DNA of 64,000 bases, taken from NCBI GenBank assembly GCA_030278955.1, contig JAOANR010000014.1:2051920-2115919 (forward strand), given 5' to 3'. A program made the translations under genes and the position numbers. Origin of the DNA: Hygrophila difformis. Its lineage: Eukaryota; Streptophyta; Magnoliopsida; Lamiales; Acanthaceae. Numbering within the stretch: position 1 is the first letter of the stretch; the number at the start of each line of letters is the position of its first letter. Shown in pieces: positions 3,369 to 63,998 of this stretch. Below the pieces are notes generated by a model. That model saw only the letters and a program-made list of their open reading frames with translations. It ran no database searches and had not been told where the DNA came from.

Positions 3369-3689
3369 GTATGAAGTTTAGTGCTTAATTTAATTATCGG
3401 AAGCATGATGGGCTGATATTGGACTAATGATAATGAAGAAACTAAAATCTGGGGTCAAAATGAAATAAAGTAAAAGTTGGTAGGGTTAATTGAAGTTTGA
3501 AAAAGTCAAAATAGTCTAAATGGCCTTAATTTGGTCAAAGATGGTTTCTAATGGCCTAAAATTGGAAATTGATTTCATAATGGCCCAAATGTGGAAATGG
3601 TGCCTTGTAATGGCCTAAAAAATTCATTTCCTCTTAGATAATTATATTACCGTTGTATCATACTTAATGATAATAATGTATATATACAG

Positions 3690-14269: not shown

Positions 14270-14460
14270 TCTATTATGAATATCAAGGTATCCCTATGCC
14301 TAACCCAAAACTAATATCTCTCGAGGATCAGGTGTGCAATGAAGGGTTGCCTCTCCCAAAGCAAAATTCTGCATACACAAAAGCTTGAACTGGAGACTTT
14401 TGCTTAAACTGCCAGAACCTCATACCACTCAAACCAACTGCGTTTGGTCGTCTACTTGGA
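14270..14460 (-). mobile_element. tRNA-derived SINE (family B)
   Basis: Read on the minus strand, it has a Pol III A-box-like ttggtttgagtggtatgagg, then agttcaagc as B box, then a conserved body (tgtatgcag, tttgggagaggc, cctcgaga). The same body is present at 42348-42517, where target duplications are clear. Ends here are approximate. Confidence 0.55.
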
Positions 14461-15055: not shown

Positions 15056-18000
15056 CTACTGCTGCTTCTCTCTAAAAACACCCCATAGATAATACTTGCC
15101 ACGAAATCCTGGGAAGCAGATTTAATTTAGCCAGTGGTTTACTCAAGAAAACACACTCGAAGATTTATAATCATATCGATGGGAAAAGGAAAGGATGAGT
15201 ACTTAGTACTTACTCCAGTATGGCAGTTGCAATTCTGTTGAAGTGAAGACCAGAAGCTCAGCATTCTGCACAATCGCTCTCATAGCGAGCTCTTCATTGA
15301 GCATCTCATCTACTAAAATGTCGTAATCCTTTTCACTGCTATAGAATGGAAAAACAAAAAGAACTTGTACCCTTAGGAAAGTACATAGAAAATTGGGGGG
15401 TGGTGGGGGGGGGGGGGGGGGGGGTGTGCGGGCTAAAAAGGGGAAGTGACTATATAGGAATCATCAAGACCTAATGTTGGATGGAAAGAAATAGAGAGCA
15501 ATGTGTCCACTGGGCTCCACTGTCTCAAAACTTTTGGGCCAAATATCCGACTTTGGAAGTATTTCAAGCTCAACCAGTGATGGGAACTGGTGTGCTTCCT
15601 TGTACGCTCTTTCACATGCTCTACTAGACATGTGAGCCATGAGGCCATGGATAGGTTCCTCTTTGTTCCATATACTGAAACTTCCCCTGTTTTAAGGTAT
15701 TAGCAAATTGGTGAAACCTGCAAAAAAATCAAATGAAAGGAAATTTACGATAGTTTTGAATCCACTATTCATATTTCTCACCTCCAAATTGAATCCAGAA
15801 CTGGTTCACCAGGTTCACACGTCTCAACACTGGATGCAATGTTCAGATCTTCTGGAAGCTCTACGGGCAAAGTGCTCAAATCTTCATGTGCAGGGGCTTT
15901 ACCCTCGGTAGTTCCTGACTTCCTAATTTCACTAAGGTTATCACTTTGGTCTACACTCCCTTCGACAGTACTCACGTCAGAGCACTGCTTTTCTAAAATG
16001 AGCCGTTTATTTTTTACCACATGTCGAGAAAAGGTAATTCCTTGCCTCGGATCCACCATTTGTGATTCACAAGATATAGCCATTTTCTCCTGGGAAATTC
16101 TCAAGCTGCAGCCATTGCTTGATAAAGTAGAACTCGCACTTGCACCAGGTTTGCGATCTGATTCACATGGTTTACAGGAGAAATTCTGATCATATCTCTT
16201 CTTAGGGGATAGAAGCAAGTCACTGTCAATGGCAGATTCCTCATTGCTACTGAGCCTATCCAGGTTTTTCCCTTCTTTCAACTTATCAGATAGCCTGATT
16301 AGCCTTCTCTTTCTTTTCCTCTGGCTTTTCTCCCCTGAATTACCCCTCAAGAATGAATTCTGCTGCATCAGATTATCCTTGGTTTTTTCCTTCTCATGGC
16401 ACCTGGAGGAACTTGTCATCCATCTTTTCTTTTCATCTGACACTTTATATTCTTCAAGACAACACCTCTCGGACAATTCTGCACATTCAACGTATTCAAA
16501 TTTTGTGCATGAAATGTGTGATTGTTCGCGGTAAGCCCCATCAAAATTACACTCCTTTTTCTTTACTGCAGCCGTATTATTTTTCATTAATTGAGGTTTG
16601 TTACCAACTGTCTTCATTTTATTTTCCAAAGAACAATCATCACAATTCCAACAAACAAATTCATCGACAGTTTTTGGTAATATGTCCAGGCAGTAACTGA
16701 AAAGTACAGACAATGCAGCAAAGAATCAATGTCCAAACCCAAAAACCTAGACAAAAAAAGGACAGAGTTTCCACAGCTTCACAACTAAAGACTAGGTAAA
16801 TTTTAGCAGAGCAATTGCTTATGTTTTTCTCCAACAGAAAAAAAATCAATTGAAATACGAGCTTGAAAGAGAGGTAGGAAGTAAAAAATATATTAAGAGC
16901 GAGTATTATAGTTTGAACTTGCAAACAACAAATATCATCAGCATGCACAAGTGGCTTACCGATGCACAGCAAAATTGAGACATCTCACACAGTATACAAA
17001 TGCATTTGTGAATCCTGTCATGCCACACTGAAGGCATACTGTCTCCTGTACATGAATTTATGCACCATTGATTACCGCAGAAACTTGTAATATAAAAAAA
17101 TAAAAAAGCACTAAAATTTTTTCAAACATATGCAAAAAGCCCGATTCATGGATACATGCCAAATTTATATCCTACAGTAATAACCAATCTTCTTCTTCCT
17201 CAGGGATCATCAAAGGAACCTGGCTTAAGAGTATAGTTCAGAATCTAAGGATCATCTAATAAAAAACCCATAAGGCCACAAAACAAAAGATTCCTACAGC
17301 AAATATCCCCAGTAAACCAAATATCTTGTTTCTTAGATGTGGTCAACAAGAAGGAAAGAGCGTGATTCATAGGATGAGATCATCAAATCAATGATCCATT
17401 TTTCTGGTTTCCGGGGAAGGTCAGGACTGCCTTTTCAAATATCATTAAAAATATAGGTTATAGTTTTTAACCATAATGTAACACCCCCATTTTCGGAGCA
17501 ATGGAAAGACAAGGCATTATTCTAGATATTGTCGGTTCGAAGGTTGATCTCACAAACCAACATCTATCCATTATGCTTAGCCCTCACTCATGCATACACT
17601 GAAAGACTTACAAGAGGTCACTCGTCCTAAGATTATTCAAGGCAAACACATTTATCTTTAGAGTTGTTATAGGATGACTAACAAAAGAGAAAGGTATTTT
17701 GTTTTCGACACAGTGGCAAGACAAGGTCTTACTCCCTAAGAAACAAACATGAGCACTTTCCACTACACACACCCTAAGAAACTTCCCAAGAGTTCTTATA
17801 AGATGTCGATAAACTTGGTAAGAATAGCTTGTATCACTGGATATTAAACATAAAAGCATCATATAATTCCCCAACAGAGGTATCAAAATAAGCATATTAA
17901 TCAAGAGGACCAACAAGAGTATAATACCAACTTCAAAATCTTTCAAAGATTTACATACAGCATATCGCAAAATTCAAAAAGACAAACATAAATATGCATT

Positions 18001-18126
18001 CATTGCACACATCAACGGCAACATTCAGTACTATTGAAAACTTGAATATTCAGGAATTAAATAAACCGCATAAAAACAACCAAATTCGAAGTAGGCTAGA
18101 GACAATGGATAGGAAAAGTTCACCAT
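15056..18126 (-). CDS. PHD-finger protein of the AIPP2/PAIPP2 type (six exons, 465 aa)
   Basis: Exons: ...18124 (ATG is the last codon of exon 1), 17045-16960, 16696-15782, 15686-15471, 15338-15214 and 15108-15056. All introns are GT/AG and the frame is unbroken (1398 coding bases). The N-terminus is a PHD-type zinc finger: TVCLQCGMTGFTNAFVYC, then C and H ligands in VRCLNFAVHRYC, then CWNCDDC. The long third exon is low-complexity, charged and Ser-rich, with a basic SQRKRKRRL nuclear-localisation candidate. Exons 4-6 encode the conserved C-terminal domain of AIPP2-like proteins, with HIALYFFPS, ELLVFTSTELQLPYW and FRGKYYLWGVF. In Arabidopsis, relatives read histone H3 marks in complexes that repress transcription; that role is inferred here. 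A hAT-like MITE sits in the leader/promoter at 18329-19025. A truncated second copy lies at 35.5-37.0 kb. Confidence 0.88.
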
Positions 18127-22446: not shown

Positions 22447-23550
22447 CAGTAGCTCTTGATGTATTCCATTAATTCTTTATACATTTTTAATTTATTCTCT
22501 TAAAAATATAACTATACAGAATTTTTCTAAACAATTAAAGATTTTTACGAATTCTATATAAGTCAGTCAAACTCTACATGAATTCTATACAAAATTAAAA
22601 AATTCAAGGTAATTCTAGGTGGAGTTTATGAACTTTCTAAATCACCGATTTTTTTTTTTAAATTCATAAAATTCTGGATCGAATACACCCCTTAATTCAT
22701 TTCTTTTCAAACACTAAAAAATCCAACTTTACCAAATACACACGATTCACAAAAACAAAACACGTCTCCACCGTGAACCACACACCATGTGCCGTCATCG
22801 AATCCAATAATGTCTTGAAGAACTCAAGGAGAAAGATAAACCCTAAACCAATGTGATGCGGTTTTAGGTTTAGAATGAAAAGAATTTCTAGATTTTAGAA
22901 TGTAGACAAGTTTTAGGTTTTGAACCAATGTGATGTTAGGAGTGCTTTTAGGACTTTGAACACAAGTATGTTCTAAATATTTTTAGAAAACAAATGGCAT
23001 CTGACCCATCTGTAATGTTTTGAATGCATTTAATATGTTCCAAATATTTTGTAGAACAAATGTCCTCCGCTGCATAATTTTTTGAGAGTACATTATATAT
23101 TCTAAATATTTTGTAGAACGCATGCCCTCTGTTCACCATTTTTTTAAAACACACTGAATATGTTCTAACCATTTAGTAGAACAAATGCCGGATATGTTAG
23201 AACATAGCCTCTGTTCTTCGACATTTTTTAATTCTTTTACTCTTAGTTATTTTTAGCAATATCCAAGCATTGCTAACAACATAATTTTCTGTGGTGGTTA
23301 GGAAAAATGTTAAATGTAGTATTCTAAATAATAATAATAGTTACTTTTTTTAAAATAATTTCAAATGGTACACTACAACAAAATTGTAGGATAGCGACCG
23401 GCATATGCGGTCGGTAACCCTTAGTTTGGGATCGTTCCAGTGCTTAGCGACCGGCTTACCGACTGTAACATGCCGGTCGCCACTTAGTCCGTAAAGAGTT
23501 AGGCACCGACTGCAGGATACCGGTCGTAAATATTTCCGACCATATTTGCG

Positions 23551-23555
23551 ACCGG
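23551..23555. repeat. Target site duplication ACCGG, left side of LTR element
   Basis: ACCGG at 23551-23555 is repeated at 33030-33034 directly after the second LTR. It lies in a gcgaccgg subterminal repeat of the CACTA element, showing that the LTR element inserted into the CACTA element. Confidence 0.9.
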
Positions 23556-24974
23556 TGGCAGCTTGTCGTATAGCTGCAAAAGATAATTTAATTCCTGTGT
23601 CACTAAGCACAAAATGAATATAGTATAGCGGTGACAAGGGTCGAGTCCTCAGGGATTGGAATACCACATTCTCATAATATATACAATATTTAAAAGGGGG
23701 GGTTTTGTATTTTGAGAACAATAAAATGATAACAAGAACTAAAAACTAAGTAATTCTACAAACTATGAAAATGATGAGTGAGATCAAGAACATATATTTA
23801 AAACAAAGTATTGGAATTAAAAACCTCTAGTTCAAAGATTGATTTGGAATGGCATTTGGATAAGATCATCGATGCATAAACATTGTGCCAATTGATAAAC
23901 CAGTTATAGTTGTCAGGTCCGCTTAGACAACCAACTTTTCCTTTCAGTTTAGACAATTAAGGTACGCCCGTTAATTGCCCCTAATCAAACTAACACTCCT
24001 AGGTACGCCCGTAGAAGATGTTGTTCAATTGCATTATAATCTAGAAAAGCCCGATTCGAACCAATTACTACCTACGCGGAGTAATTCACAATTCGATTAC
24101 ACAATTCCCCGGGAAGGAACTAATCAACCCGGTTACCACCTATTCAATTCAAGTACAATTACGGATACCCAAATTGAATTGGCAATCAATTATCAAACTA
24201 GACAAATATTTGGGCCCTAAACATTCATCCAATTCAACAATAGTAAACCTTAAACATAGAAATTGCATAAATATCAACAAACATCAAGTTTCATAGTTCA
24301 CAAATTACATCATCTCACAAATTCCAAAAGCCATTCTTAATCAAGTCTTTAAACTAGAGAAAATGAAAAACTACTCTAAATCCATAGAAAATAAAACAAA
24401 TGTAAAGAAGAGATTTTACAACCAAACCAAGAGAAGAGATGAGGATGGATGAGTTTTCTTCCTTTTCCTTCTTGCTATCCTCCTTCTCTTCCTTATTCTC
24501 CTCCTCTCCTTTCTTCTTCTTCTTCTTTCTTCCTCCTCTCTTTCTTTCTTCTTCCTCCTCTCTTTTTATTCTTGCTTTTTAGTTCATGTGTCCCTTTCTT
24601 CCTTTTTGTTTTCTTCTTCTTTTTCTTGCCCATCCCTTTCATTCTTTGTTTCTTTCTACCTTTTTCTTCTCCTACTTCTTTTTGTTCTTTTCCCTCATTT
24701 CTTCTCCTACTCAAGTGCATTGTCCCTTTCTTCAATTATGTAATGGCTTGGGCCCATGGACTTGGGTCTTCTACTAGTCATGGCCATGACTAGGGAAGTC
24801 ATGGTTGCATGTCATTTTCTTTATTTTTTTCTTCCACTTTGCTCTAATTATTCCATTGCTATGCCATTTTCCTACAAACAACAAAACAAACACAACAAGA
24901 GTAAAGTGCTACCAAAATCACCATAAAATCATCCAAAATATATATCATTAACAAACACAAAATTCACACTATCA
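23556..24974 (-). repeat. 3' LTR of the retrotransposon
   Basis: 1419 bases. Against the other LTR the only differences noticed are one T/C near 24273 (partner about 32328) and one T/C near 24829 (partner about 32881). The pyrimidine-rich block (24440-24730) gives long meaningless Ser/Phe/Pro ORFs on the plus strand. Confidence 0.93.
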
Positions 24975-27900
24975 AATTCCCCCACACCTAAAGTATGCTT
25001 GCCCTCAAGCATAAAGTCAAAAGAAACCAAATTAAATCATTGAGAGTTTAAAATCAACAAGTCCATTCAAGTACAATCAAATTAATCCAACATCAAACAT
25101 ATTAAGCCAACACCTCCCATGGGTAAAGTGTATGCACTCCTCTCAATATCAAGTGTGGTTGAACAAATAAGCACTCAAGTGATAAATCAAAATGACAATC
25201 CCATAGGCTTGAATGAAAATCACATTTCCCATGCAAAGACATATTATCCAACATTAAGAATCAAAGGGTCTTTCAAAAAGGGTAATAACGGGGCCATGGT
25301 TGGGGTAGGTAGAAAAAGGAAATAGAAAGGCTAAAGTGAATGCAAGTACTTCCAAAGAGTCATCATAGAAAACATTATAGCACATCATGGTTGCCAAACC
25401 AAAACAAAACCAAGAGGTTCAAAAGAACAAAAATTACATCTATTCTATCCTCCCAAAGGTTTTCCAAAATAAACAAACCAAAAGATCATCCTATATACAA
25501 CTTCCAAACAATCCCAAAATTTCCCAAGCAATAAACCAAAACAAAAACAAAACTTGCCAAACATATATCCCCTTTTTTTTATTTATTTTTTATTTTTTTC
25601 TTTTTTTTTATTTTTTTTCGTGGGCTTCAATAGCTTAGACATGTTTATTAGAGGAATTCAACAATCTGAAAAGTGCAGACGGAACTTCAACTCTATGTTC
25701 ATAACACTGAGGTCAGAGGAACACATGTCAAGCTATATCCATCCACTGCCCTTGTATTTATTTATTTATTTTTAAGGGCTGTTTTTTTTTTGGAAATTTT
25801 TTTTAGGGGAATATGTATATACAAAGATTCCACAAATCATTCCAACAAAAAATCCAACAAAATAGCTTGAGAATCCCACAAACCAATTTCAAAGCTTTTT
25901 TATTTTTATTTTTATTTTTATTATTTTTTTATTTTTTTCGCAACCAACACAAAAATTCAACCATGATGACTTATGAAAGTACTTCAATCACTAGGGTTCA
26001 AAAGCAATGGTATAACAAAAAGAAAAGGCTTAATAGGCTAAGGGTTATATATAAACAAAGAAAATGGATAAAAGGCTCAAAGTGGAAAACTAGGGATAGA
26101 AATATGGGTTAAGGCCAACAAGAAGGCTAAAAAGGTTTATCCTAATGCCCTTATCATGTTCAAAATATTGGATTCAATCAATGCAAGTTCAACATGTATA
26201 ATCATTCAAATTCTAGAATGTCAAAATGATTACCACATAATTCACACAAGAAAGAAATTTCCAAAAGCTTGAGATAAGTGTATTTTTATTTATTATTATT
26301 GTTTTTTTTTTTTAGTAAAACATCAAGCTTTGGAAAGAGGCTCAATTTCTCACATTGGTTCACAAAATAGTTGGCTTCACATGTTCAGTGTCAGAAATCA
26401 TCAATCATACTTAAAAGATTTGTCAACTTAAACCTCATAGACTCAATTCAGTTACCTATTCACATCAAATTCACAAAAAAATTCACATAAAACTTAAAAA
26501 ATTTATATAAAACAACTTGAAATTTTTTTTTTTATTATTTTTTTTAAATTTTAAATTAATTTTTTTTATTTTTATTTTTTAAATTTTAATTTTTTTTTTA
26601 ACAGAAAATGGCAAGCAATGCAAAGATAGTTATTCCCCCACACCTAAAGTCTACATTGTCCTCAATGTATTAAAAAGATAAAGGAAGAGAACTTCCCCTT
26701 AAACTCATGAGGGGTTTGATGGCACGGCATGGTGGAATGTTGAAATGCTTGAACAGGACTATTTGATAATTTTGAATCCCTGCACACAGAAAACTTCGCA
26801 AGAAGTATCATATCTCGACAAAAACATCAAATTGCAAGCTTAACGATGGATTATTAACTTTTTAAACTCAATACTAGTGAAAGAAAAATGACAATAACAT
26901 GCCCCCTTTTTTTTTTTAACTTCCACAACAATTACACCATCATAAGCAAATTCCTTTCCAATGATAGAGAAATTCCACATCTTGCAAAACATAGAAAGCC
27001 CAAAAGTATGCATTTTTCTCGGTATTCAATTCATGAGAAATCAAACTTATCAATACCAGCAATCAACTAAAGGCATGCTCTTTTCCCAGTTTCCAATTCA
27101 CACAACAACAAATTTTGTCATAATCAATTTTCCAAATTCAATTGACACAGGGATATCACAGTAAATGCAGAAAATCTAGAGCATATTTTTCTTCCAATTC
27201 AACCAGACAAGAAATATCATAGAAGCAAAAATTAACATAGTCCATTACTTCCAAAAATTGAAATGAGATTACCCGGATAGTGAAAGCAATGGTAAGATGA
27301 AGCATCGGCTTGGACAGTAGAGGGACGTGGCCGGAACAGGAAGGAAGGGCGGCGGCGAGTCTGGCGGAGCAGCTAGGGTTCCGGCGAGCGGTGGTGGCGG
27401 CGGTTCGCGAACAGGTTGGTGACGGCGGCGACTTTCGCGGCGGTGCTGGTGGGTTCAGGAGGACGAGCGGTGGGCGGGGAGATGGTCGGAGTTGGTGGCT
27501 TTCGTCGGTGGATCTGAGGAATGGCGGCGGTGGAGATGGCGTTCGTCGGCGCTGCTCGCGACGGAGGGAGAGAGTGGCGGCGGCGCGAGGACGAGACATG
27601 GGTGGTGGTGCGAGGTCAGGCGACGACGGCTGGGCGAGCTTCGTCGAACAGAGGGGAGCGGCGGCAGTGGGAGCTAGGGTTTCGGCGAGGGGCGAAGTGG
27701 CGGCGGCGCGCTCCAGCGGAGGTTGGCACAAGGTGGAGGCGGCGACTGGAAACTGGAGGTGGTGCGACGTCGGATGGAGGCGACGCCGGACTGAGACGGA
27801 GGCGAAGGTGTGGCTGGAGAGATAGCGCTGGTGCTCCGGCGAGGCAGGCGCGAGGACGACGGAGTTCCGGCGAGACAGAGAGGCGCGGCGGGCTGGGCGA

Positions 27901-28992
27901 GGGCTGGGCTGGTGCGGCGGGGAGATGGTCGGAGTTGGTGGCTTTCGTCGGTGGATCTGAGGAATGGCGGCGGTGGAGATGGCGTTCGTCGGCGCTCCGG
28001 CGGAGGCTGGCCGGCGGTGGGTGGTGGTGGGCGGTGAGTGAGATGAGGTTGAAGATGGTGGTGGGATTGGGGAAGAAGAAAGAAAAAAATGGGTGTTGAA
28101 AAAAATTGGGATTTGAAAAAATTGGGGAAGAAGAAAATGATGGTGGTGGTGTTGAAAGTTCTTGGATGGGAAATTTGGAGATGGATTTGAGAGGAGGAGA
28201 GGAAGAAGATGAGTGGTTTGGGTGGTGTTTGAAGATGAGGTTGAATGGATGAGGGAATAATTGGGGAAGAAAAATAATTGGGGAAGAAAGAGAAAAAGAA
28301 ATTGGGGGATGAGGGAAAGAAGTAGTTGGTGATTTCAGTGGAGTTGGTGTGAGTTAATTATGGCCATGACTAACAATAGGGAAGTTTCCTGAAAATTAAA
28401 GCTCAAAAAGGGACCAAATGCAGGTAGGCAAATGGAGTTTATCCATGGCCATGACTAAGGGTAGTGAGGTTTCCTGAAATTTTGGTTTCCAACACAAGCT
28501 TCTATCATGATCTTAAATATGGGCATGACTAACATGTGTATTCCTTCCTGAATTAAACTTAATTTTTATATATATATATATATATTTTATTATTTTTTTT
28601 ATTATTTATATATTTTTTTTTAATTTTTTAATTTTTTAATTTTTTTTTTTAAATTTTTTTTTATTTTTTTTTTATTTTTTTTATTTTTTTTTATTTTTTT
28701 TAATTTCAGCAAGTTTAATGTGATTTAATCATGCTCATGAGTACCCATTACCTCCTTCACTGAAAATTTCCTCCTTAAAACATTTCAACTTGTTTCTTGA
28801 TCCAAAAATCACATCTTCACATCTACAAACCTACAAAATCACAAACAAAATACCATTAACAAATCAAAATTATACTAAATATATAATGATCAACATGACA
28901 AAATATATAGCATAAAAATATTTTATTTGCTTGGGTTGCCTCCCAAGAAGCGCTTTGTTTAAAGTCCTTGAGCTAGACTTCTTCCAAATTCT
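24975..28992. other. Retrotransposon interior without coding sequence
   Basis: Occupies the place where pol would lie. It holds AT-rich sequence with poly-T tracts, a GC-rich block at 27300-28050, and a very long poly(T/A) low-complexity stretch at 28560-28710. No RT, RNase H or integrase motif was seen in any frame. Confidence 0.75.
27300..28050. repeat. GC-rich cggcgg block with internal duplication
   Basis: Strong GC enrichment with ggcggcgg units. 27477-27551 (ggagatggtcggagttggtg...) is repeated almost exactly at 27919-27993. Overlapping ORFs exist in several frames on both strands, none with a recognisable domain, as expected from composition alone. It may be a captured 5' exon or a regulatory region of the element. 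Confidence 0.55.
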
Positions 28993-31515
28993 TCAACCAT
29001 TCTCATAAGCATCATACCAAAATCCACCAAACTTCTGCAATTGCAATTTTTTTCGACATTCATGATTATTCAAATCCATTCCATCATTTTTATCCCTTAA
29101 TGCTTCAAGCCATACTTTCGGTGGATCTTTTCCATTCAACTTAAATTTTTTGTTAGACCCAAAGTTTACAGTATCTATCCATTCAATATCTCCAGGGTCT
29201 TTACCATTAAGCTCACGAATATCCTGCACACAAGGTTGAATAACATTAATAGCATATAAAGCTTTAGAATCATCAGGATGTTCGACAGTATTAGAAAGAT
29301 TGAAAGAAAGTTCTTCTCCATCAAATTCCAAAGTAAGAGTGCCTTTCTTCACATCAATCTTCACTCCTGCAGTATACATAAAAGGTCTTCCCAACAAAAG
29401 AGGGGGTGGATTAAAGCAATGATCATCGTTCATATCCACAACATAGAAATCTACAGGAAATATTGCATCATTAACTTGAACTAACACATCTTCTAACATA
29501 CCATCCGGATAAGCATTTGATCTATCAGCAAGTTGAATAATAATTCCTGTTTCTTTCAATGGACCTAGATTTAGGGAATTATATATTGATCTTGGCATCA
29601 CATTTATCGCAGCACCTAAATCTAACATGGCTTTGCTCATCTCTTTTGTTCCAATTTTGCAAGGAATTAAAAACATACCTGGATCACCTGTTTTGGGTGG
29701 GATTTTTCTTTTTATGACTGCAGATACACTCTCACCTGCTATTATATACTCATCTCCCCGAAGCTTCTTTTTGTTGGTGCACAATTCCTTCAAGAACTTT
29801 GCATACTTGGGGATTTGATTGATGGCTTCCAAAAGTGGAATGTTCAATTGAACTTTCTTGAATATTTCAAGCATCTCTTTCTTTTTATCAACCTTTGGAG
29901 GCTTCTTTAACCTGTCGGGAAAAGGAGGTATTTTAGTTTGATATAAATGAATCCATTTAGAATTTACCTTGTTAGAAGTTTCTGCCTCATTTTCAATCTC
30001 CTTCTCAATTTGTTCTTCATTTTGTTCCTTTGACATTGGAGAAGGACCTTCAACTTCTTTTCCACTCCTCAAAATCATGGCACTGACATTCTTCGGGTTT
30101 GGCTCGGGTTGAGCTGGCCATTTTCCTTTCTCTCGAATTTGCCTAACTTCCTCAGACACTTGATTGATTTGGCTTTGCAATTTTTCAATACTTGCCTTCG
30201 TGTCTTGTTGAAATTGCAAAGTTGATGTGGCCATGGATTTCACCAATTCTTCCAAAGATGGACTTGAACTTGTTGTAGCTTGAGGTGGTTGCCTTTCAAA
30301 TTGACGAGGGGGGTGCACTTGTTGTGGTGCCGAAGATGGATGATTTTGTTGTTGATGTTGATTGCCATACCGAAGATTTGGATGATCTCTCCAACCTGGA
30401 TTGTAAGTATTGGAATATGGATTGTACTGTGGACGCCAATTGGAATAGTCAAGTGCATTCACATCCACCGGTGTATCTTCTTGGAGAGTTGGGCATGCAT
30501 CAGTTGGATGTTCAGTACTTGTGCAAATGCCACATGCCTTCACCTGGACAGTTGGCTTTATACTTCCTGTGGCCATCTTACGAACAAAGCTTGTCAACTC
30601 TGAAAGTTGTTGTTGCATTGTTTGCATTGAAGAATCACTTGGCATATTAGTTGGCATTGCATCCATTGTGCCAAACTGTTGAGTATTCTCTGCCATTCGA
30701 TCAATCAACTCCCAGGCTTGTGTTGGAGTCTTATTCACCAAAGCTCCTCCACTTGCAGCATCAATGATGTTCCTGTCCATCAACAACAAACCATCATAGA
30801 AGTATTGAATTAATAATTGGGGTGGGATTTGATGTTGAGGACATTTAATTATTAGCCTGTTAAACCGCTCCCAGTATTCATGGAGCGTTTCACCTGATTG
30901 TTGTTTGATGCCACATATTTCCTTCCTCAAATTTGCAGCTCTTGAGGCTGGGAAATACTTCTCCAAGAATTTCCTTTTCATGTCTGTCCAAGTTGTAATG
31001 CTACCTGCTGGGAGATAATAGAGCCAATCTTTTGCACTCCCTTTCAATGAGAATGGAAATGCCCTCAATTTGATTTGTTCATCTGTAACTCCAGGGGGCT
31101 TCATGCTTGAACATACTACATCAAATTCCTGGAGATGCTTGTGAGGCTCTTCACCTGCAAGACCATTAAATTCAGGCAACAAATGGATCAATCCAGATTT
31201 TAACTCAAAGGGAGTTTCATCATCAATTGTAGGAAATGTAATGCATAAAGGCTGCTGTGTTAAGTCAGGAGCAGCCAACTCCCTCAATGTGCGGTTATCT
31301 TCAGCCATGACAATGTTTTTTTCTTCTAAAGATTCTGTATCACTTCCTTCACTACTGGAACTAGAAGTGTCCAGCTCTGTAGCCAATGACAAACCAGAAG
31401 TTGATGTAGAAACTTTAGATTTTTTTCTTAACTTGGCTTCCCTTGTCAATCTACGAGCTGTCTTCTCAATCTCTGGATCAAATATCAACTCACCTGTACG
31501 AGAAGAACGAGGCAT
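28993..31515 (-). CDS. Retrotransposon Gag-protease polyprotein (Athila/Tat-like)
   Basis: 840 residues from the ATG at 31515; 18 upstream bases in frame lack an ATG. In order: a capsid-like gag domain with the FSLKGSAKDWLYYLP and CGIKQQSGETLHEYWERFN blocks (about 130-230), a CX2CX4HX4C zinc knuckle CGICTSTEHPTDAC (about 328-341), a Gln/Pro-rich linker, the ILRSGKE motif typical of plant Ty3 gag proteins, and an aspartic protease with active site MLDLGAAINVMP (about 630) and LLLGRPFM downstream. The frame ends after FDGEELSFNL and a short tail; no RT follows. Gag packages the element RNA and the protease would mature it. The intact frame fits the very young LTRs. Confidence 0.9.
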   Translation of the reverse strand: MPRSSRTGELIFDPEIEKTARRLTREAKLRKKSKVSTSTSGLSLATELDTSSSSSEGSDTESLEEKNIVMAEDNRTLRELAAPDLTQQPLCITFPTIDDETPFELKSGLIHLLPEFNGLAGEEPHKHLQEFDVVCSSMKPPGVTDEQIKLRAFPFSLKGSAKDWLYYLPAGSITTWTDMKRKFLEKYFPASRAANLRKEICGIKQQSGETLHEYWERFNRLIIKCPQHQIPPQLLIQYFYDGLLLMDRNIIDAASGGALVNKTPTQAWELIDRMAENTQQFGTMDAMPTNMPSDSSMQTMQQQLSELTSFVRKMATGSIKPTVQVKACGICTSTEHPTDACPTLQEDTPVDVNALDYSNWRPQYNPYSNTYNPGWRDHPNLRYGNQHQQQNHPSSAPQQVHPPRQFERQPPQATTSSSPSLEELVKSMATSTLQFQQDTKASIEKLQSQINQVSEEVRQIREKGKWPAQPEPNPKNVSAMILRSGKEVEGPSPMSKEQNEEQIEKEIENEAETSNKVNSKWIHLYQTKIPPFPDRLKKPPKVDKKKEMLEIFKKVQLNIPLLEAINQIPKYAKFLKELCTNKKKLRGDEYIIAGESVSAVIKRKIPPKTGDPGMFLIPCKIGTKEMSKAMLDLGAAINVMPRSIYNSLNLGPLKETGIIIQLADRSNAYPDGMLEDVLVQVNDAIFPVDFYVVDMNDDHCFNPPPLLLGRPFMYTAGVKIDVKKGTLTLEFDGEELSFNLSNTVEHPDDSKALYAINVIQPCVQDIRELNGKDPGDIEWIDTVNFGSNKKFKLNGKDPPKVWLEALRDKNDGMDLNNHECRKKLQLQKFGGFWYDAYENG

Positions 31516-31589
31516 AAACAAGGAAAATACCAATTAAAACTAAAAAGATAAAAAAAAATATCACAGAATGTAGTAGTTGAACGCCAATC

Positions 31590-31607
31590 CCCGGCAACGG
31601 CGCCAAA
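31590..31607 (-). promoter_or_regulatory. Primer binding site complementary to tRNA-Asp
   Basis: Minus strand TGGCGCCGTTGCCGGGGA starts a few bases inside the 5' LTR and matches the complement of the tRNA-Asp 3' end. This orients the element on the minus strand and points to the Athila/Tat group. Confidence 0.85.
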
Positions 31608-31610
31608 ATT

Positions 31611-33029
31611 TGGCAGCTTGTCGTATAGCTGCAAAAGATAATTTAATTCCTGTGTCACTAAGCACAAAATGAATATAGTATAGCGGTGACAAGGGTCGAG
31701 TCCTCAGGGATTGGAATACCACATTCTCATAATATATACAATATTTAAAAGGGGGGGTTTTGTATTTTGAGAACAATAAAATGATAACAAGAACTAAAAA
31801 CTAAGTAATTCTACAAACTATGAAAATGATGAGTGAGATCAAGAACATATATTTAAAACAAAGTATTGGAATTAAAAACCTCTAGTTCAAAGATTGATTT
31901 GGAATGGCATTTGGATAAGATCATCGATGCATAAACATTGTGCCAATTGATAAACCAGTTATAGTTGTCAGGTCCGCTTAGACAACCAACTTTTCCTTTC
32001 AGTTTAGACAATTAAGGTACGCCCGTTAATTGCCCCTAATCAAACTAACACTCCTAGGTACGCCCGTAGAAGATGTTGTTCAATTGCATTATAATCTAGA
32101 AAAGCCCGATTCGAACCAATTACTACCTACGCGGAGTAATTCACAATTCGATTACACAATTCCCCGGGAAGGAACTAATCAACCCGGTTACCACCTATTC
32201 AATTCAAGTACAATTACGGATACCCAAATTGAATTGGCAATCAATTATCAAACTAGACAAATATTTGGGCCCTAAACATTCATCCAATTCAACAATAGTA
32301 AACCTTAAACATAGAAATTGCATAAATACCAACAAACATCAAGTTTCATAGTTCACAAATTACATCATCTCACAAATTCCAAAAGCCATTCTTAATCAAG
32401 TCTTTAAACTAGAGAAAATGAAAAACTACTCTAAATCCATAGAAAATAAAACAAATGTAAAGAAGAGATTTTACAACCAAACCAAGAGAAGAGATGAGGA
32501 TGGATGAGTTTTCTTCCTTTTCCTTCTTGCTATCCTCCTTCTCTTCCTTATTCTCCTCCTCTCCTTTCTTCTTCTTCTTCTTTCTTCCTCCTCTCTTTCT
32601 TTCTTCTTCCTCCTCTCTTTTTATTCTTGCTTTTTAGTTCATGTGTCCCTTTCTTCCTTTTTGTTTTCTTCTTCTTTTTCTTGCCCATCCCTTTCATTCT
32701 TTGTTTCTTTCTACCTTTTTCTTCTCCTACTTCTTTTTGTTCTTTTCCCTCATTTCTTCTCCTACTCAAGTGCATTGTCCCTTTCTTCAATTATGTAATG
32801 GCTTGGGCCCATGGACTTGGGTCTTCTACTAGTCATGGCCATGACTAGGGAAGTCATGGTTGCATGTCATTTTCTTTATTTCTTTCTTCCACTTTGCTCT
32901 AATTATTCCATTGCTATGCCATTTTCCTACAAACAACAAAACAAACACAACAAGAGTAAAGTGCTACCAAAATCACCATAAAATCATCCAAAATATATAT
33001 CATTAACAAACACAAAATTCACACTATCA
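31611..33029 (-). repeat. 5' LTR of the retrotransposon
   Basis: 1419 bases, same length as the other LTR and nearly identical. It ends at 33029 and is followed by the ACCGG duplication. As the 5' LTR on the minus strand it contains the promoter for the gag transcript. Confidence 0.93.
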
Positions 33030-33614: not shown

Positions 33615-36038
33615 TCAGTGCACTGTGATATCACCTCCATGACCGAAGCTGCCTCCGACATCATCATCCATGTCGTCCGGAGAGCGAGGTCTGCGACCAC
33701 CTTGCAATCTATCCATCTCCTCCTGCATCATCAGCTGCATCTGGGCAACCTCATCAAAAGTAGTCTTAAAAGCATCGAATTCCTGACGTGTGATGAACTC
33801 CGTGCTGGATTGTGTAGAAGTGGCATCAGCTTTGTCTGTCGGCTTTATGGCTTCGGCAAGCGAGCATATACCATATACAGCCCTCCGTCTGTTGTGTCCA
33901 CCCACAATCTCGTAGAAGACACGGTCTGGATCAAATCGACCTTCAGTAGTCAGGTTTTGGCTTAAAGCCTCTGTCACAGCATTGAACACCTCCTATATTC
34001 GAAGTCACAAATACACAAGTAAAATATCACAATCTCTGACGGTTAAACTTCCTATTATTTCTACATAATATTAATTAAATTACATTCCATGCCTTTAAAT
34101 ATATATTCATAAACAATACATACATTAGATAAAAGATGAACTTATTAAGTACAAGAGACTAATTACCTGAACCTCTTGTGACCTAGGTGCAATCCAATTG
34201 CCTGGCTGATGCTTCCTTGTGTGTGTGTGCTCGTGCAACTCGTGAAAGTGGATTGTTCTATTTTGATCGGTAGACTGCAGAATAAAGTATAAGTTAAATG
34301 GAACATATATTACATAGTGAATGTTTATGTAAGATTGAATAAGTTAGGACTGTATACCAATTTTTTAAGAGTAGCACGGTGTGTCTTCGATCCAGACGTA
34401 TGCGTGGGGAGGGCTGGAGCAGTCTCCTGGCCGCGCCGCCTATTTAATTTTGCCCTTTTCTGTCTATCCTTGAATGCAGGGGAATCCCACAACCGCTTCC
34501 AATTTTCAGCAACTATCGCATCCCGTGGGAATGGTTTCTTGTTCCGTCTGATATCCAGAGTATAATCCTTATACCTTAAATTTTCAAAGTTCAGTTATGT
34601 TAGATAATAAAAAAGTTCAAAACTTCATTGTTCAATCAATAACATTTTAAACACTTCTAACATAATTTCAATCCTAAAGGGAAATCATCTACCGCTGTAT
34701 GTTCTTCTTCTCCCACACTTTCCTCACGCTCGCCTCATGCTCGGGTTCCCAACGAGCAACTTTCTGCGAGGAATTTTACATTTATGATATTTATTAGTGA
34801 GAAATACTTATAATAACAAACCTTTAACAACATCTACATCATACCTGAAACTCTGCCCAATAAAACTCCTTGGTCGTTTGGGAGACTTTCCCCCACGTGA
34901 TCCCATTCATATCAGACCTCATGGGATAGCAATCCCACATCTTCCTAACAAGGGAATTCGGGATCTCAATGCTGAAATAAATATTATTGTTACAAGGACA
35001 AGGTATGTCAGAGAACATTAAGCGAAACATAAAACGTAAATACAGAAAAATATTTCTAAATGGAGAACATAGCTCACTTACACCCCATCTGTTGGATCAG
35101 GCGCAAGCAATGTGCGGTTGGGAAGCGTTTGCACAATTGGAGTAGCTGGTGCAGTATCCCCCGAAGCTAACAACCAAGACCATGTTTTGTAAATAACTAA
35201 TGTTTATCACATGCACTAATTCACATTGTTTATACCTGGAGTGAGGGGGGGTGGCATCTCCGGTACAGCTGTATCAGTATCTGGTGTATTAACATCTTGC
35301 TCTTCCGCATTAGAAGTAGCTACCATTGTGTAAGACAATTCGGGCGTAAAATCAATGTTACTAGCAAAGTAAATCCATGAAAAATATTGTTTAAAAGGTT
35401 GGTTTTTTACACTAACCTACTCTCTGTCGTCGTATCCTCTTCCATATCTCGCGTACTAAAGCAGCGAGCTCAGTCCCTGTAAGTGGCCGTCCAGAAGTCT
35501 CCGGCTGGGAACCTGTCCCACACGGAGTGCTAGAGGACGAGTTCTGCTGCATCAGATTATCCTTGGTTTTTCCTTTCTCAATCTGCTGGGAGGAGCTTGC
35601 GATCCATCTTTTCTTTTCATTTGACATTCTACATTCTTCAAGACAACAGTTGTCAGATGATTCTTCTGCACATTCAATAGGCTTCTTGTTCTTCACCGCA
35701 TCCATATTAGTTTTTATTAATCGATCTGTGTTGCCAATTGTCCCCTTTTCATTTTCCAAAGAACAATCCTCGCAAGTCCAATAAACAAATTCATCGACTG
35801 TTTTTGGTATTGTGCCCAAGCAGTAGCTGAAAACAAGTAATTAAAACATACACAATGCAGCAAAGAATCAATTTCCAAGCCCAAATACCTAGACAAACAA
35901 AGCAACAGTAGTTTGCAACTGAAAAATCAGCATATGTTTTGCAACTGAAAAAATCAATTCAAATATTAAATTGAAAGACAGAGTCAGGAAGCGAAAAAAA
36001 TATCAAGAGAGAGAGTAATATAGTTTGAAATTGCAAAC

Positions 36039-36070
<32 letters not shown>

Positions 36071-36841
36071 TTAACATGGCTTACCGATGCACAGCAAAAT
36101 TGAGACATCTCACACAATATACAAATGCATTGGTGAATCCTGTAAAGCCGCACTGCATACATACAGTCCCCTGCACAAGGAATTTATGCACCATTGATTA
36201 GTATCAGAAACTTGTAGATTTAAAAATATTTCTATTACACTAGAAGCAAAATGCAATCAATGAAGATTTCGAAAGCACTATTTTTTTTTTCTCCCAAACA
36301 TATGCAAAGACCCAGATTTTATGGTTAATTGCTAAATTCATATCCTACAGCCACCAATCTTCTTATTTCTCAAGAATCATCAAAGGAAATAGGCTTAAGA
36401 ACGTAGCAGAAACTAAGGATTCCATAATAGAAACCAAAAGCCAAAACACGATAGATTACTACAGCAAATATCCCTCACTAAAACGAATATCTTGTTTTAG
36501 ATGTGGTCAACAAGAATGAAAGTACTTAATCCGTAGCGGAAATCATCAAATCAAGGATTCATTTTTTTAGTTCCGGGGATGGTCCGGACGGCCTTTCCAA
36601 ATAACATTCAAATATCTAATTGTACTTTCTAGTTCTTAACCATAAAGCATCCTATAATTCCCCAACACGAGTATCAAAATAAGCACATTAAACAAGAGGA
36701 GCAATCAGAGTAAGAGTATACTACCAACTTTAAATCCAGCAAAGAATTACAAATTATCATTGAAAACGGGTATGATCAGGCATTGAATAAACAACAAAAT
36801 TGTAAGTAGACAGGAGACAAGGGGTAGAAAAACTTCACCAT
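33615..36841 (-). CDS. Chimeric gene: PHD finger fused in frame to CACTA Ptta/En-Spm protein (519 aa)
   Basis: Ten predicted exons: ...36839 (ends in ATG), 36170-36085, 35826-35417, 35319-35236, 35166-35084, 34964-34845, 34763-34693, 34574-34358, 34274-34167 and 33992-33615. All introns are GT/AG and 1560 coding bases are in frame. The exon 6 acceptor is the second of two nearby AGs; the first would shift the frame. Exons 1-3 are the paralogue of the 15-18 kb PHD gene: GTVCMQCGFTGFTNAFVYC, VRCLNFAVHRYC and YWTCEDC, so all zinc ligands are kept. Exon 3 switches at about 35541 from PHD-gene linker to transposon sequence (PETSGRPLTGTEL). The rest has Ptta features: GITWGKVSQ, RTIHFHELHEHTHTR, RFDPDRVFYEIVGG, a Gln/Met-rich helix and an acidic tail. 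It lacks the AIPP2 C-terminal domain. Whether it is transcribed as one mRNA is not known. Confidence 0.65.
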
Positions 36842-37035
36842 AATGCTGGAAAATTCACGAAACCCACAAATACAAAGCAAGTTCGATTATAAAAACCTAA
36901 TCTTGAATAAAAGCCCAAGTCTTGAAATTGAACAAGCGTGTGTATTCAGCATGGACAAGTAGAAGGGTAAAGTCGACGAGAAGAAAGCGGGAACTCGTCG
37001 ACGAAGAAATCGAAAAGACGTCGCAGTAAAAAGCA
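35541..37035 (-). other. Truncated second copy of the PHD-finger gene with its leader
   Basis: Matches 16361-19060 of the complete PHD gene in exon 3 (5' part), exon 2, the introns, the ATG-donor junction and the leader (gcgggaactcgtcg), but without the MITE present there. The second intron carries an (ATC)n run at 36041-36070. Exons 4-6 and most of exon 3 are missing, replaced by the CACTA gene. Similarity is well below that of the LTRs or viral copies, so the duplication is much older. Confidence 0.8.
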
Positions 37036-42347: not shown

Positions 42348-42517
42348 GTGAAACCGGGTATCCCCGGGCCACATTGGACCCAAGACTAATCCCTCGAGGA
42401 TCTGCAGGAGCAATTAAGGCCGTCTCTCCCAAAGCAGTTTTCTGCATACACAAGGCTCGATTCCGAGACTTTGCTTAAGCGACTAGAGCTCACATCCATT
42501 CATGCCAACCGTTGTTT
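42348..42517 (-). mobile_element. tRNA-derived SINE (family B) with 18-bp target duplication
   Basis: Perfect direct repeats GTATTCTAGTATTATTTA flank it (42330-42347 and 42518-42535). The minus strand has a ggttggcatgaatggatgtg A-box region and a ggaatcgagcc B box, and shares a body with 14270-14460. The long intact duplication indicates a fairly recent insertion. Confidence 0.85.
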
Positions 42518-43165: not shown

Positions 43166-43804
43166 ATCGAATTCTCTAGCTAAATCACTTTTCTTTTTAT
43201 ATAAATATTTTAGGACACATGCAAGAAAAATATTTCAATTCATTACTTATTTCATAAAAAACATTGGTGATAACTCATTAAGTTGATATTTAACGGTTTA
43301 TTTAATAACATTAATTAAAAACACGTAAATATTTGAATATATTCAATAATTATAACTAATTCACCTCCTTTCTGTAGCTTTTTAAATTTTTCCCCCTTTG
43401 CTGATGTCCTTGTACGTAACGTTACTAGTTATCCAAAAAGAAAAATAATTATAACTAATGCAGTGTACTGTAGTATTTGATTAGTGTCGAGAGTTTGACC
43501 TTTGTCAAACTTGAGCAACATATAATTTTTTGTAGTGTGATTTGGGGGTTTGATCAAATTTGTCATTATATTACACTTGACAAAGTATTAGATACATAAT
43601 TAATTGTAATCATGCGCTTATTTCCACTCGATCTTCCATTACGGATCGGAGAGATAGCTAGCAAAATTATCAACATGAATTTCTGTTAGATTTCCACTTA
43701 TATTTCGTACTTGAATTTATTTTTTGGTGAACCGAGAGATTTATGTGGCATAGGCTCCCACCACCATTTATCTGGCTTCGGCTTTTCTAAAAAAATAAAT
43801 AATA

Positions 43805-55744: not shown

Positions 55745-56848
55745 ATTAGGAAAAATATTTCATCTTCACTCTTTAAATATTTTTTTATGCTAAAACTTTG
55801 ATATAGAAAATGCCGAAACAAAATAATATTGGAATTTTTAAAAAAAAATGTAGAAGCCATGAGGTTGCAAAATTGCGATCAAATTAGAAGAGAAGAATGA
55901 CGTGTAGTGTAGTAACAACTAAAAAAACGGGTGGATATAATATGGTATATGTGCAGCCACGTTTTTACCTAGAATGAGCTCCACATTGAAAACGACTATC
56001 ATAGATACGTATTTTACGAATTTTAGGTCAATTGATTTTAATTTTTAAACCTTTAGATACATATTTGTAATATAAATACACATCTTTACTGTCAAGGGAT
56101 TGGGGACTTCGATCAAGGAATTTAACACTTGGACTAAGTGTTTAATCTCTATTGTGAATATTTTCTTATAAAGAAAAAAAAAATGGTGGAGATGAATATA
56201 CTTCTAATTCTACGATTTTTAAGATATATCTTTATGGTGAACTTTGTTCAGATACATAATGTATATATTTTTTTTTAGAAAGAGAATGAATAATAATAAT
56301 AATAATACATGTCAAAAAGTTAACAAGAATGGAACGATTTAATTTGTTTAGTGGCGGTATCTATACGGGATTGATTATTAATGGGGTAGACTATTCTTGA
56401 TTAACAATGTGACAGGACTAAAAAGTCTTTATCACTTACACTACTTCATAAATAAAGATTTAGATAAACATTAAAATTACAAATATATTTATATTAATTA
56501 TATCATATTTGTCACCGTAATTCAGTGTATTTAATTATATCTATATATTTAAAATTATTTCAATATACATGAAACACGAAAATAAGGAAGAGTTAGAGAA
56601 AGCACCACTTTAAATGGTGGGATCATAAAATATTAAAATGAAAATAAAATAAAATGTTTTATTTAAGGGTAAAAAAAAAAACTAGGTTGATGTAGGACGT
56701 ATTATTAGTAACAAAGTCATTTATGAATACACCTAGAAGTAAATTATTCACATTGAATTTGATTTGGGTGCTGAATCAACAGTGTTAAAGTGCTAGAATA
56801 GTAGTTTATATGAGTTGAATGAATATATTGTATGTGATAAATATTTTT
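55745..56848. other. AT-rich spacer, no gene seen
   Basis: Only short ORFs, a few (AAT)n runs (56290-56307) and no recognised repeat. It ends at the abrupt start of viral similarity. Confidence 0.5.
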
Positions 56849-57540
56849 AGAGGAAATGAATTTTTTAGGCCATTACAAGGCACCATTTCCACATTTGGGC
56901 CATTATGAAATCAATTTCCAATTTTAGGCCATTAGAAACCATCTTTGACCAAATTAAGGCCATTTAGACTATTTTGACTTTTTCAAACTTCAATTAACCC
57001 TACCAACTTTTACTTTATTTCATTTTGACCCCAGATTTTAGTTTCTTCATTATCATTAGTCCAATATCAGCCCATCATGCTTCCGATAATTAAATTAAGC
57101 ACTAAACTTCATACCTTGGCTTTGACCGCCTTGCTGCCGGGTTTCCTAAGCTCCGGGATTTTACGGACTTCCTCCAACCACGCAGCCGCGACCGATGGTT
57201 CACCGATTCTTGGCTCCTTCAGCAACAAACAGCACAGTCCTATTTCGTTTCCTACCTTAGGACGTATCAAGATATGAATAAAGGGTTTTAATTATATTAT
57301 CGGGATATTTGGGATTTTTGGAAGCCTGGATTTTACTGAAGAAATATTAAAAATATTATTTAAACATAATTTCCCCTAACGGAGAAGACAGACACTTAGT
57401 TCCTCATGGAGGATACAAGACTCTTGGGGGAATACCCCATACTTTTACAGACTCGAAAGGAAATATGCAGAAAGAGAAATATTACAAATACTTTGAAGAG
57501 TTGGGAGGAATTTTCGATGCCTTCCATCTGCTTCAAACTC

Positions 57541-57552
57541 CTTTATTTATAG
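57541..57552 (-). promoter_or_regulatory. TATA box of the pararetroviral promoter, right copy
   Basis: The minus strand gives CTATAAATAAAG, after the same GC-rich gcgggcgc block as in the left copy. It lies between the last viral ORF and the leader sequence. Confidence 0.65.
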
Positions 57553-57800
57553 GCGCCCGCGGACTTCAGCCCCGGATTCCAATCTTCCTCTAAATCCTTG
57601 TGACGTCACTGCGTTCGTCACTTGGCCTTAATTTCCACCGGCTACATTATTGTCCTTTTTTGAATTATTGCGTTAGGTGGCTTTTGTCAACTTTCCACCT
57701 TCTCTTGTCGGCCACGTTCTGCCAGCTACTCTGCCCTTCTTTGTCGGCTTTTAATTATGGGTGTTGCCGACACCTCTCTTTCTTTTACATCCAGCTAATC

Positions 57801-59093
57801 TTACTTTGGCTTGTGAAAGTTTTTTGGACGTTTCTTCCCTTTGTCCTGTTCGGGTCCGGATTTATTCTGGGTCACCCGGATCTTTGTACCGAATAGGGGT
57901 TTCTCCTGTTCTGCACAATATGGACATATGTGGTTATCCCATTGGCCAACATGCATCATGTTGCATGCCTTTTTTCTGGTAGACTCGGTTGCTGGCAACT
58001 TGTTTTCCCAGATGAGTAACCTCTTCTTTTCGAATGAGGTTTCCGCAAACTCTGTGCTTTTCCCTGTTAAAGAATTAACCAGGAACGATCCATTTAAATT
58101 GTTTGAGAATATTTTAAACGGATATTTAACCTTTTCCATCTCGGTGAGACAGACCCAGAATCCCCATGCTCGTCGGGTGGAGATTTCATCTTCGCTGATT
58201 GAAGATACCAATGGTGCCTTCTCATCCATAGACTTAACTCTGTTGAAGGCAATCATATCAGGTCTTTGTAATTTAATAAATTGAAAGACCGGATAAGAAC
58301 CTTTTCCGACTATTTCTGGTGCCGCTGAAATAAACTTAAGCTCCAGAATATCTCCTCTTTGCAGGTGCGGGTTGTTCTGCCATGATTCGTGCACCGCACT
58401 ACTTATCCATCCCGGAAGTTTTTCGATTTCCGGAAACCCTGGTGATGTAGTATGAACAGATGCTAATGCTCCAAAGTCATACCACTTTCGAACCTCTTCT
58501 GGTTTCGATCCTTCGAGCATCCATACCCTGTTGTATCTCCCGGATGTCTCGATTACTGTTTTGCTAGGGTTAATTCCCTTTTTGGAAACCAGTTGTTCCC
58601 ATTTTCCTTGGTAGTCCAGCCAGGCAGTAGATAGGACCTTCTCGTCTGAATTAACCTTAGAGGTGCCTGTTATTGGCCTAAGGTTAATTTCTTCCTCTTT
58701 CACCCCAGAGGCAGTGGGTTGACTTGAGCTTTCGGAAATGTGACTTTCCTCTTGCTCAACATTTTTGTCGGTATCCGACAATGGTTCCTTTGAAGCAGTG
58801 CTTGAATCTGCTTCTTCATATGTGACCACTTTAGCTTTTTGGGCACATTTCTCTTTGTTTACCAGGGAAGCTGACGCTTTCCTGATTGGCTCTAATACTG
58901 TTTCCCATAGTGCTGTCATTGCTATATGGGAGGTTCGTATATTGTTGCGGACCATGTCCACATCGCTCTGTTGTATTTGGCCAGCTGCTCGTGCATTGAT
59001 CTCGAGCTGTCCAAAATGCTTCGATAGCTCCTCTAGGTTTTCTCTGAGGTGCCTGAATCTCGTAATGATGGAATCAGCTTCAAATGCTTCCAT
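57801..59093 (-). CDS. Pararetroviral ORF in the ORF VI position, right copy
   Basis: 430 residues, same length as the left copy (1390-2682). A handful of substitutions are seen, for example a Met/Ile change near residue 141, a Cys/Ser change in the Cys/His cluster near 374, and a Lys/Asn change near 408. The Cys/Ser change affects one potential zinc ligand but leaves HICPYC. The frame is open, and its ATG overlaps the expected end of the polymerase gene. The role as transactivator/inclusion-body protein is inferred from gene order only. Confidence 0.65.
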   Translation of the reverse strand: MEAFEADSIITRFRHLRENLEELSKHFGQLEINARAAGQIQQSDVDMVRNNIRTSHIAMTALWETVLEPIRKASASLVNKEKCAQKAKVVTYEEADSSTASKEPLSDTDKNVEQEESHISESSSQPTASGVKEEEINLRPITGTSKVNSDEKVLSTAWLDYQGKWEQLVSKKGINPSKTVIETSGRYNRVWMLEGSKPEEVRKWYDFGALASVHTTSPGFPEIEKLPGWISSAVHESWQNNPHLQRGDILELKFISAAPEIVGKGSYPVFQFIKLQRPDMIAFNRVKSMDEKAPLVSSISEDEISTRRAWGFWVCLTEMEKVKYPFKIFSNNLNGSFLVNSLTGKSTEFAETSFEKKRLLIWENKLPATESTRKKACNMMHVGQWDNHICPYCAEQEKPLFGTKIRVTQNKSGPEQDKGKKRPKNFHKPK

Positions 59094-59289
59094 CTCTCGT
59101 TAGGAAATCTGCAAGAACATTTTCATGAGATTTTATAACATCAATATCATAAGTATAATATTGACATTCAGCTTGCCATCTGATAATACGAGCTTTTTCA
59201 ATTTTTGATTCAAGTTTATTTTTTAAAAAAGCCCTAACATTAGTATTATCAACTTTTAATACAAATTTCTTTGCAAGTAAGAATAAAGG

Positions 59290-63786: not shown

Positions 63787-63998
63787 TCGACTGTTTTCAG
63801 GAGATCGATCATAAGCTCTTCTTGTGATTTCTGCTTTGGAACCATAGTTGCTTTACCCTTTTGATGTAAAGCTTGTACTGGTCCGAATGCATCTCTAATA
63901 TTGGCTTGGTTATTCTTGGAAGATCCAGGAATATCCTTCTGCCTTTTCTTGATATCCGAAATATCAAATTTCAGATTCAAAATTTCTTTCTTTAGATC
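63783..63998 (-). CDS. Pararetroviral VAP-like ORF, 3' end only
   Basis: Open from the right edge, so the start is outside the window. The visible 71 residues begin with a heptad-type helix (DLKKEILNLKFDISDIKK) and end in a basic, Gln/Lys-rich tail. The virion-associated proteins of Caulimoviridae (ORF III of caulimoviruses, ORF II of badnaviruses) also join an N-terminal coiled coil to a basic DNA-binding C-terminus, and lie just before the coat protein. The assignment rests on position and this pattern only. Confidence 0.5.
   Translation of the reverse strand, partial: DLKKEILNLKFDISDIKKRQKDIPGSSKNNQANIRDAFGPVQALHQKGKATMVPKQKSQEELMIDLLKTVE

What the first reader, a model, noticed from the sequence alone, without database searches (positions are those of the whole stretch)
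33615..36841. In-frame fusion of a host PHD finger to a CACTA transposon protein
Exons 1-3 of a second copy of an AIPP2-type PHD gene run, at about 35541 inside exon 3, directly into the Ptta/En-Spm accessory gene of a CACTA element. I followed ten exons: every boundary is GT/AG, all zinc ligands are kept, and 1560 bases stay in frame for 519 codons. A random junction between a gene and a transposon would seldom keep frame in exon 3 and in every later exon. The product would join a putative histone reader to a transposon DNA-binding/accessory protein, with the PHD gene's own promoter upstream. Host-transposase fusions of this kind are known as a source of new chromatin regulators.
Basis: partly seen in the sequence, partly recalled or inferred. 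Interest (0 to 1): 0.88.

Follow-up and report, generated by a model that had tools for sequence, protein, structure and literature searches.

The report
Plant gene-transposon chimera, probably chance-made
A damaged duplicate of a plant zinc-finger (PHD) gene has been joined, in the right reading frame, to a leftover piece of a jumping gene; the join is there in the DNA, but nothing yet shows that the plant uses the mixed protein.

Summary
The chimera exists in the assembled DNA. On the minus strand a ten-exon model (1,569 nt, 522 codons plus stop) runs from the PHD finger of a truncated AIPP2-type duplicate into a Transposase_24 (Ptta/En-Spm) gene. An intact paralogue with a SPOC_AIPP2 domain lies about 19 kb away. 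The transposon is a 5'-truncated CACTA remnant of about 2.7 kb, with one CACTACAACAAAA end at 23371, subterminal CCGGTCG motifs and a later LTR-element insertion. No second end and no 3' half of the PHD duplicate were found in the window. The simplest origin is a deletion from PHD exon 3 into a CACTA element lying downstream.

None of 80 plant homologues carries PF03004. Expression, selection after fusion and conservation are untested; the genome search did not complete (15 calls). Most likely a fortuitous chimeric pseudogene; a functional fusion is possible but less likely.

The parts
36842..36959 (-). 5' flank of PHD copy 2 still similar to that of copy 1 (probable promoter-proximal part and 5' UTR)
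   Evidence: blastn segment 36959-36789, 79% identity; 131 aligned bases of flank, JC 0.200
36839..36841 (-). exon 1, only the ATG
   Evidence: model; same layout in copy 1
36085..36170 (-). exon 2, first part of the PHD finger
   Evidence: 10 of 86 bases differ from copy 1
35542..35826 (-). exon 3, host part: rest of the PHD finger and linker
35417..35541 (-). exon 3, transposon part; host-transposon junction at about 35541
   Evidence: homology to copy 1 ends at 35539-35541; G+C step
35236..35319 (-). exon 4 (open-frame prediction)
35082..35166 (-). exon 5 (open-frame prediction)
34845..34971 (-). exon 6 (open-frame prediction)
34693..34763 (-). exon 7 (open-frame prediction)
34358..34574 (-). 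exon 8, start of the Transposase_24 match
34167..34274 (-). exon 9, inside the Transposase_24 match
33615..33992 (-). exon 10, end of the Transposase_24 match and stop codon
23556..33029 (-). LTR retrotransposon inserted in the CACTA subterminal region; LTRs 33029-31611 and 24974-23556; target duplication CCGGT
   Evidence: gag domain
23371..23555 (-). remaining CACTA subterminal region with CCGGTCG motifs; terminal CACTACAACAAAA (read on +) at 23371-23383
15056..18126 (-). intact paralogue (copy 1), six coding exons, 465 aa, SPOC_AIPP2 domain at aa 334-460

Best explanation
A tandem duplicate of an AIPP2-type PHD gene lost its 3' half in a deletion that ran from inside exon 3 into a CACTA element lying downstream in the same orientation. 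The same deletion removed that element's 5' end and whatever lay upstream of its Transposase_24 gene. The surviving 5' flank and exons 1-3 of the PHD copy now sit directly before the transposon gene, by a 1-in-3 chance in frame. If transcribed, the locus could make a 522-aa protein joining an N-terminal PHD finger to a Transposase_24 protein, without the SPOC-like domain. The CACTA remnant has one end only and should be immobile. Later an LTR retrotransposon inserted into its subterminal region. Shown: the parts, their order, the junction, the pieces not found. Inferred: the deletion, the mRNA, the protein. Most likely it is a fortuitous chimeric pseudogene without selected function.
For: Copy 2 homology stops at 35539-35541 and no 3' half was found elsewhere in the window by blastn or tblastn. 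One exact CACTA end at 23371 with all 7 CCGGTCG of the window in the remnant. The LTR element and its CCGGT duplication explain the distance from gene to end; without them the remnant is 2,692 bp. Copy 1 is intact. Frame control. The linker diverged as fast as the introns (JC 0.259 against 0.250-0.285). None of 80 homologues carries PF03004.
Against: The whole model is open, with no disabling change. PHD codons between the copies show dN/dS 0.25 (bootstrap 0.08-0.77) and all ligands are kept. The fusion keeps the PHD copy's own 5' flank. The 3-bp target duplication and the deletion itself cannot be checked with one end only. No intact relative of the element could be examined.
Confidence: 0.68

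Rival explanations
1. A functional host-transposase fusion gene: the PHD promoter drives a PHD-Transposase_24 protein whose transposon half binds CACTA subterminal repeats and whose PHD half contacts chromatin.
For: Open 522-codon model; zinc ligands kept; PHD constraint between the copies. Related genes carry other transposon-like domains: PF02892 (BED) in two Gesneriaceae genera, aligned over both halves.
Against: No expression data; no PF03004 among 80 homologues; PHD constraint mostly predates the fusion (inference); linker near the intron rate; two weak splice sites; DNA binding by Transposase_24 itself is inferred.
Confidence: 0.13
2. An assembly misjoin at about 35541 placed a CACTA fragment behind a PHD fragment.
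For: Repeats are common misjoin sites; no reads were available; the 3' half of copy 2 is missing.
Against: The paralogue lies on the same side in the same orientation, the transposon remnant ends cleanly at a CACTA end, and a datable LTR insertion with target duplication lies inside it. None of this tests the junction itself.
Confidence: 0.1
3. Gene capture: the PHD fragment lies inside a larger CACTA element that copied it from the host gene.
For: CACTA elements are known to carry host gene fragments (PMC8978399 and PMC13317346, passages; PMC1947982, listing only).
Against: No CACTA end was found upstream of 36959: the only minus-strand match there has 2 mismatches (43525-43537) and no CCGGTCG near it. 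Host-like sequence lies between, and the fragment lies near its paralogue in the same orientation.
Confidence: 0.06

Closest known systems
AIPP2 / PAIPP2 PHD proteins of the Arabidopsis BAH-PHD-CPL2 complex (PMC7718874, passages)
   Same: PHD finger; the intact paralogue has the SPOC_AIPP2 domain.
   Different: The fusion lacks the SPOC-like domain; in AIPP2/PAIPP2 the C terminus is what binds CPL2. The residue placed like D306 is Asn (by spacing).
CACTA elements with a Transposase_24 domain, e.g. soybean Tgmt* (PMC2613891, passages)
   Same: Transposase_24 gene, CACTA end, subterminal repeats.
   Different: 5'-truncated, one end only; its gene now starts in a host gene.
Pack-CACTA and other CACTA elements with captured gene fragments (PMC13317346, PMC8978399, passages)
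   Same: Host exons next to CACTA coding sequence.
   Different: Here the host fragment is outside the remnant, at its own locus beside its paralogue; no second end.
Chimeric gene-transposon transcripts in plants (PMC10241880, abstract and passages)
   Same: A gene that runs into an intragenic transposon; thousands of Arabidopsis loci make such transcripts.
   Different: Here the transposon brings a whole coding gene, and transcription is unknown.
Host-transposase fusion genes (SETMAR: PMC9062482, listing only; F-box-transposase HTH: PMC12062965, abstract start and two passages)
   Same: Host domain joined to a transposon-derived DNA-binding or transposase domain.
   Different: Those are expressed or conserved families; neither is shown here.

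Membership tests
CACTA transposon | Terminal CACTA inverted repeats at both ends | tested here: not met
   One exact end at 23371. In all 9 matches with up to 2 mismatches in the window against a shuffle mean of 3.76 (1 of 100 shuffles reached 9); the only minus-strand one upstream is at 43525 with 2 mismatches. A truncated remnant, not a complete element.
CACTA transposon | 3-bp target site duplication | not testable with these tools
   Only one end is present; the three bases after it read TAC.
CACTA transposon | Repeated subterminal motifs | tested here: met
   CCGGTCG: 7 of 7 window occurrences lie in the remnant; the shorter CGACCG: 9 of 16.
CACTA transposon | Transposase_24 (Ptta/En-Spm) gene | tested here: met
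   PF03004, 61.2 bits against cut-off 28.7.
CACTA transposon | tnp2-type transposase (Transposase_21) gene | not tested
   No family scan of the whole window was run; the 2.7-kb remnant is taken up by the Transposase_24 gene and the subterminal region.
AIPP2-type PHD gene | C4HC3 PHD finger | tested here: met
   All ligands present; 14 of 14 positions conserved in at least 90% of 69 homologous fingers are kept (this count includes gap-free columns only). Pfam PHD models score below cut-off.
AIPP2-type PHD gene | C-terminal SPOC_AIPP2 domain | tested here: not met
   Absent from the fusion; present in the intact paralogue.
Functional host-transposase fusion gene | Open frame across the junction | tested here: met
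   522 codons, but a weak test.
Functional host-transposase fusion gene | Transcript across the junction | not testable with these tools
   No RNA data.
Functional host-transposase fusion gene | Conserved in relatives or under purifying selection after fusion | tested here: inconclusive
   0 of 80 homologues of copy 1 carry PF03004, but gene sets may mask transposon genes; dN/dS between the copies mixes both lineages and the time before the fusion.

The most novel reading that the evidence does not exclude
The locus makes a PHD-Transposase_24 protein from the PHD promoter. Its transposon half binds the subterminal repeats of related CACTA copies and its PHD half ties them to chromatin: a newly born, lineage-specific trans-acting regulator or dominant-negative suppressor of its own transposon family.
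Probability: 0.1. Interest if true: 0.75.

Novelty: new member of a known kind. Interest (0 to 1): 0.33.

Why it matters
If expressed, it would be a young plant host-CACTA protein fusion whose birth steps (duplication, insertion, deletion, later LTR insertion) can be read in one window. As it stands it is a clean example of why an open, spliceable frame across a gene-transposon junction is not by itself evidence for a fusion gene.

Tried and rejected
Gene capture by a complete CACTA element: set aside for lack of an upstream end. Copy 1 as a pseudogene: my first splice choice at its exon 4 broke the frame (typed into); the acceptor before 15686 gives an intact SPOC domain. Splice-site consensus as evidence: a strict rule rejected the model's own sites, and a plain GT/AG rule accepts chains in all three frames. 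Protein searches with the transposon half found nothing at E 0.001: 7,994 candidates scored (the ones sharing most words, a capped set) and 592. The same database holds plants, so this family is divergent or masked there. A bacterial promoter scan is not informative for a plant. My first PHD pattern was wrong and matched 1 of 80 homologues; corrected, it matched 69 of 80, and the other 11 were left out of the PHD counts. A PDB search with copy 1 gave one weak hit (ORTHRUS 2, E 0.046). Nine paper searches showed no PHD-Transposase_24 fusion in the titles and abstract starts listed; most listings were capped (for example 8 of 650 papers). No structure prediction was run.

Full report
What is there. 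On the minus strand, 36841-33615 can be read as ten exons with GT/AG boundaries, 1,569 nt, 522 codons and a stop. The N-terminal 51 residues hold a C4HC3 PHD finger (Pfam PHD models below cut-off); aa 312-444 match Transposase_24 (Ptta/En-Spm) at E 1.5e-16.

The host half. An intact paralogue lies at 18126-15056 on the same strand: 465 aa, six coding exons, SPOC_AIPP2 domain at E 3.8e-44. Copy 2 matches it from 36959 in the 5' flank to 35539-35541 in exon 3 and then stops; no trace of its 3' half was found in the window by blastn or tblastn. In the PHD the two copies are 84% identical, against at most 77% (copy 1) and 73% (copy 2) to any of the 69 fingers found among 80 homologues. This suggests a lineage-specific duplication (inference).

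The transposon half. After the stop codon come CCGGTCG subterminal motifs (7 of 7 in the window lie in the remnant; of the shorter CGACCG 9 of 16) and, at 23371, the exact end CACTACAACAAAA, found once. Eight further matches have two mismatches; nine in all is more than the shuffle mean of 3.76 and was reached by 1 of 100 shuffles, but only one of them, at 43525, lies upstream on the minus strand, and no CCGGTCG lies near it. A 9.5-kb LTR element with a gag domain splits the subterminal region; it is flanked by CCGGT on both sides and its LTRs differ at 2 of 1,419 sites, roughly 50,000-110,000 years at plant rates that I recall. Without it the remnant is 2,692 bp. The stretch from 37 to 45 kb carries what looks by eye like a WAT1/MtN21-type transporter gene (no family search run). 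The element is thus 5'-truncated, and a deletion from PHD exon 3 into it is the simplest origin.

Is the frame surprising? No. Exons 4-10 are, in this model, one existing transposon gene, so their mutual frame is inherited. Joining two coding exons on the same strand keeps frame one time in three. With the exons as modelled the other two frames stop at residues 152 and 127, but stop-free GT/AG chains through this stretch exist in all three frames and in 143 of 200 random stretches. The model's exon 3 donor and exon 8 acceptor fail a stricter rule, which 169 of 300 random stretches meet.

Is it selected? Over 125 aligned codons of the two copies dN/dS is 0.50 (bootstrap 0.26-0.96); the first 56 codons, the PHD, give 0.25 (0.08-0.77), the rest 0.75 (0.32-1.94). 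PHD-coding DNA diverged by 0.126 and 0.151, introns by 0.250 and 0.285, the linker by 0.259, the 5' flank by 0.200. So the PHD was constrained over the life of the duplicates, most of it probably before the fusion (inference); this says nothing about the chimera. Among 80 plant homologues of copy 1 none carries PF03004 and all carry SPOC_AIPP2 (precomputed Pfam). That search should have seen a PHD-Transposase_24 protein of similar length, but gene sets often mask transposon genes.

What it would do. If made, the protein would join an AIPP2-type PHD to a protein class thought to act on CACTA ends. TNPA of En/Spm binds subterminal repeats, and Tgmt* carries transposase_24 in its Gene-1 (PMC2613891, passages); DNA binding by Transposase_24 itself is inferred. 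The PAIPP2 PHD binds unmodified H3K4 (PMC7718874, passages). The residue placed like its D306 is N in both copies; among 69 homologues it is D in 21, E in 14, N in 7 and something else in 27 (placed by spacing, the PAIPP2 sequence was not fetched). Histone reading is possible, not shown. A related precedent: predicted PHD-SPOC proteins of two Gesneriaceae genera carry C-terminal BED fingers, with host and BED halves both aligned at 83% overall identity.

Limits. The genome search did not answer in any of 15 calls, so no intact relative of the element, no copy number and no second junction could be examined. No RNA or read data were available. The species is not known to me.

Noticed in passing
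proteins P0035, P0039, P0040, P0041: Predicted AIPP2-like PHD-SPOC proteins of Henckelia pumila and Primulina eburnea carry C-terminal BED-type zinc fingers (PF02892), a domain I recall from hAT transposases; linker and fingers align between the two genera at 83% identity overall. A better candidate than this window for a conserved host-transposon fusion in this gene family.
   Followed up: partly
proteins P0032, P0065, P0080: Other homologues are annotated with foreign domains: a CRESS-DNA Rep domain (Ilex, PF02407) and PF14223 (Centaurea, Erythranthe). They may be gene-model chimeras or real fusions.
   Followed up: no
window 59290-63852: Caulimovirus-like open frames on the minus strand: reverse transcriptase/RNase H with A3 peptidase, movement protein, coat-protein-like frame with zinc knuckle; probably an endogenous pararetrovirus.
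   Followed up: partly
window 1-3643 and 56840-60483: A 3.6-kb inverted duplicate, 99% identical, near the two ends of the window; it holds a 432-aa open frame of unknown family and part of the caulimovirus-like sequence.
   Followed up: no
window 23556-33029: Very young LTR element, LTRs differing at 2 of 1,419 sites, with a gag domain; I recognised no pol frame by eye among its open frames of at least 100 aa.
   Followed up: partly
window 42378-42509 and 14303-14438: A 74% identical stretch of about 135 bases downstream of copy 1 and upstream of the transporter-like gene, probably a dispersed repeat.
   Followed up: no
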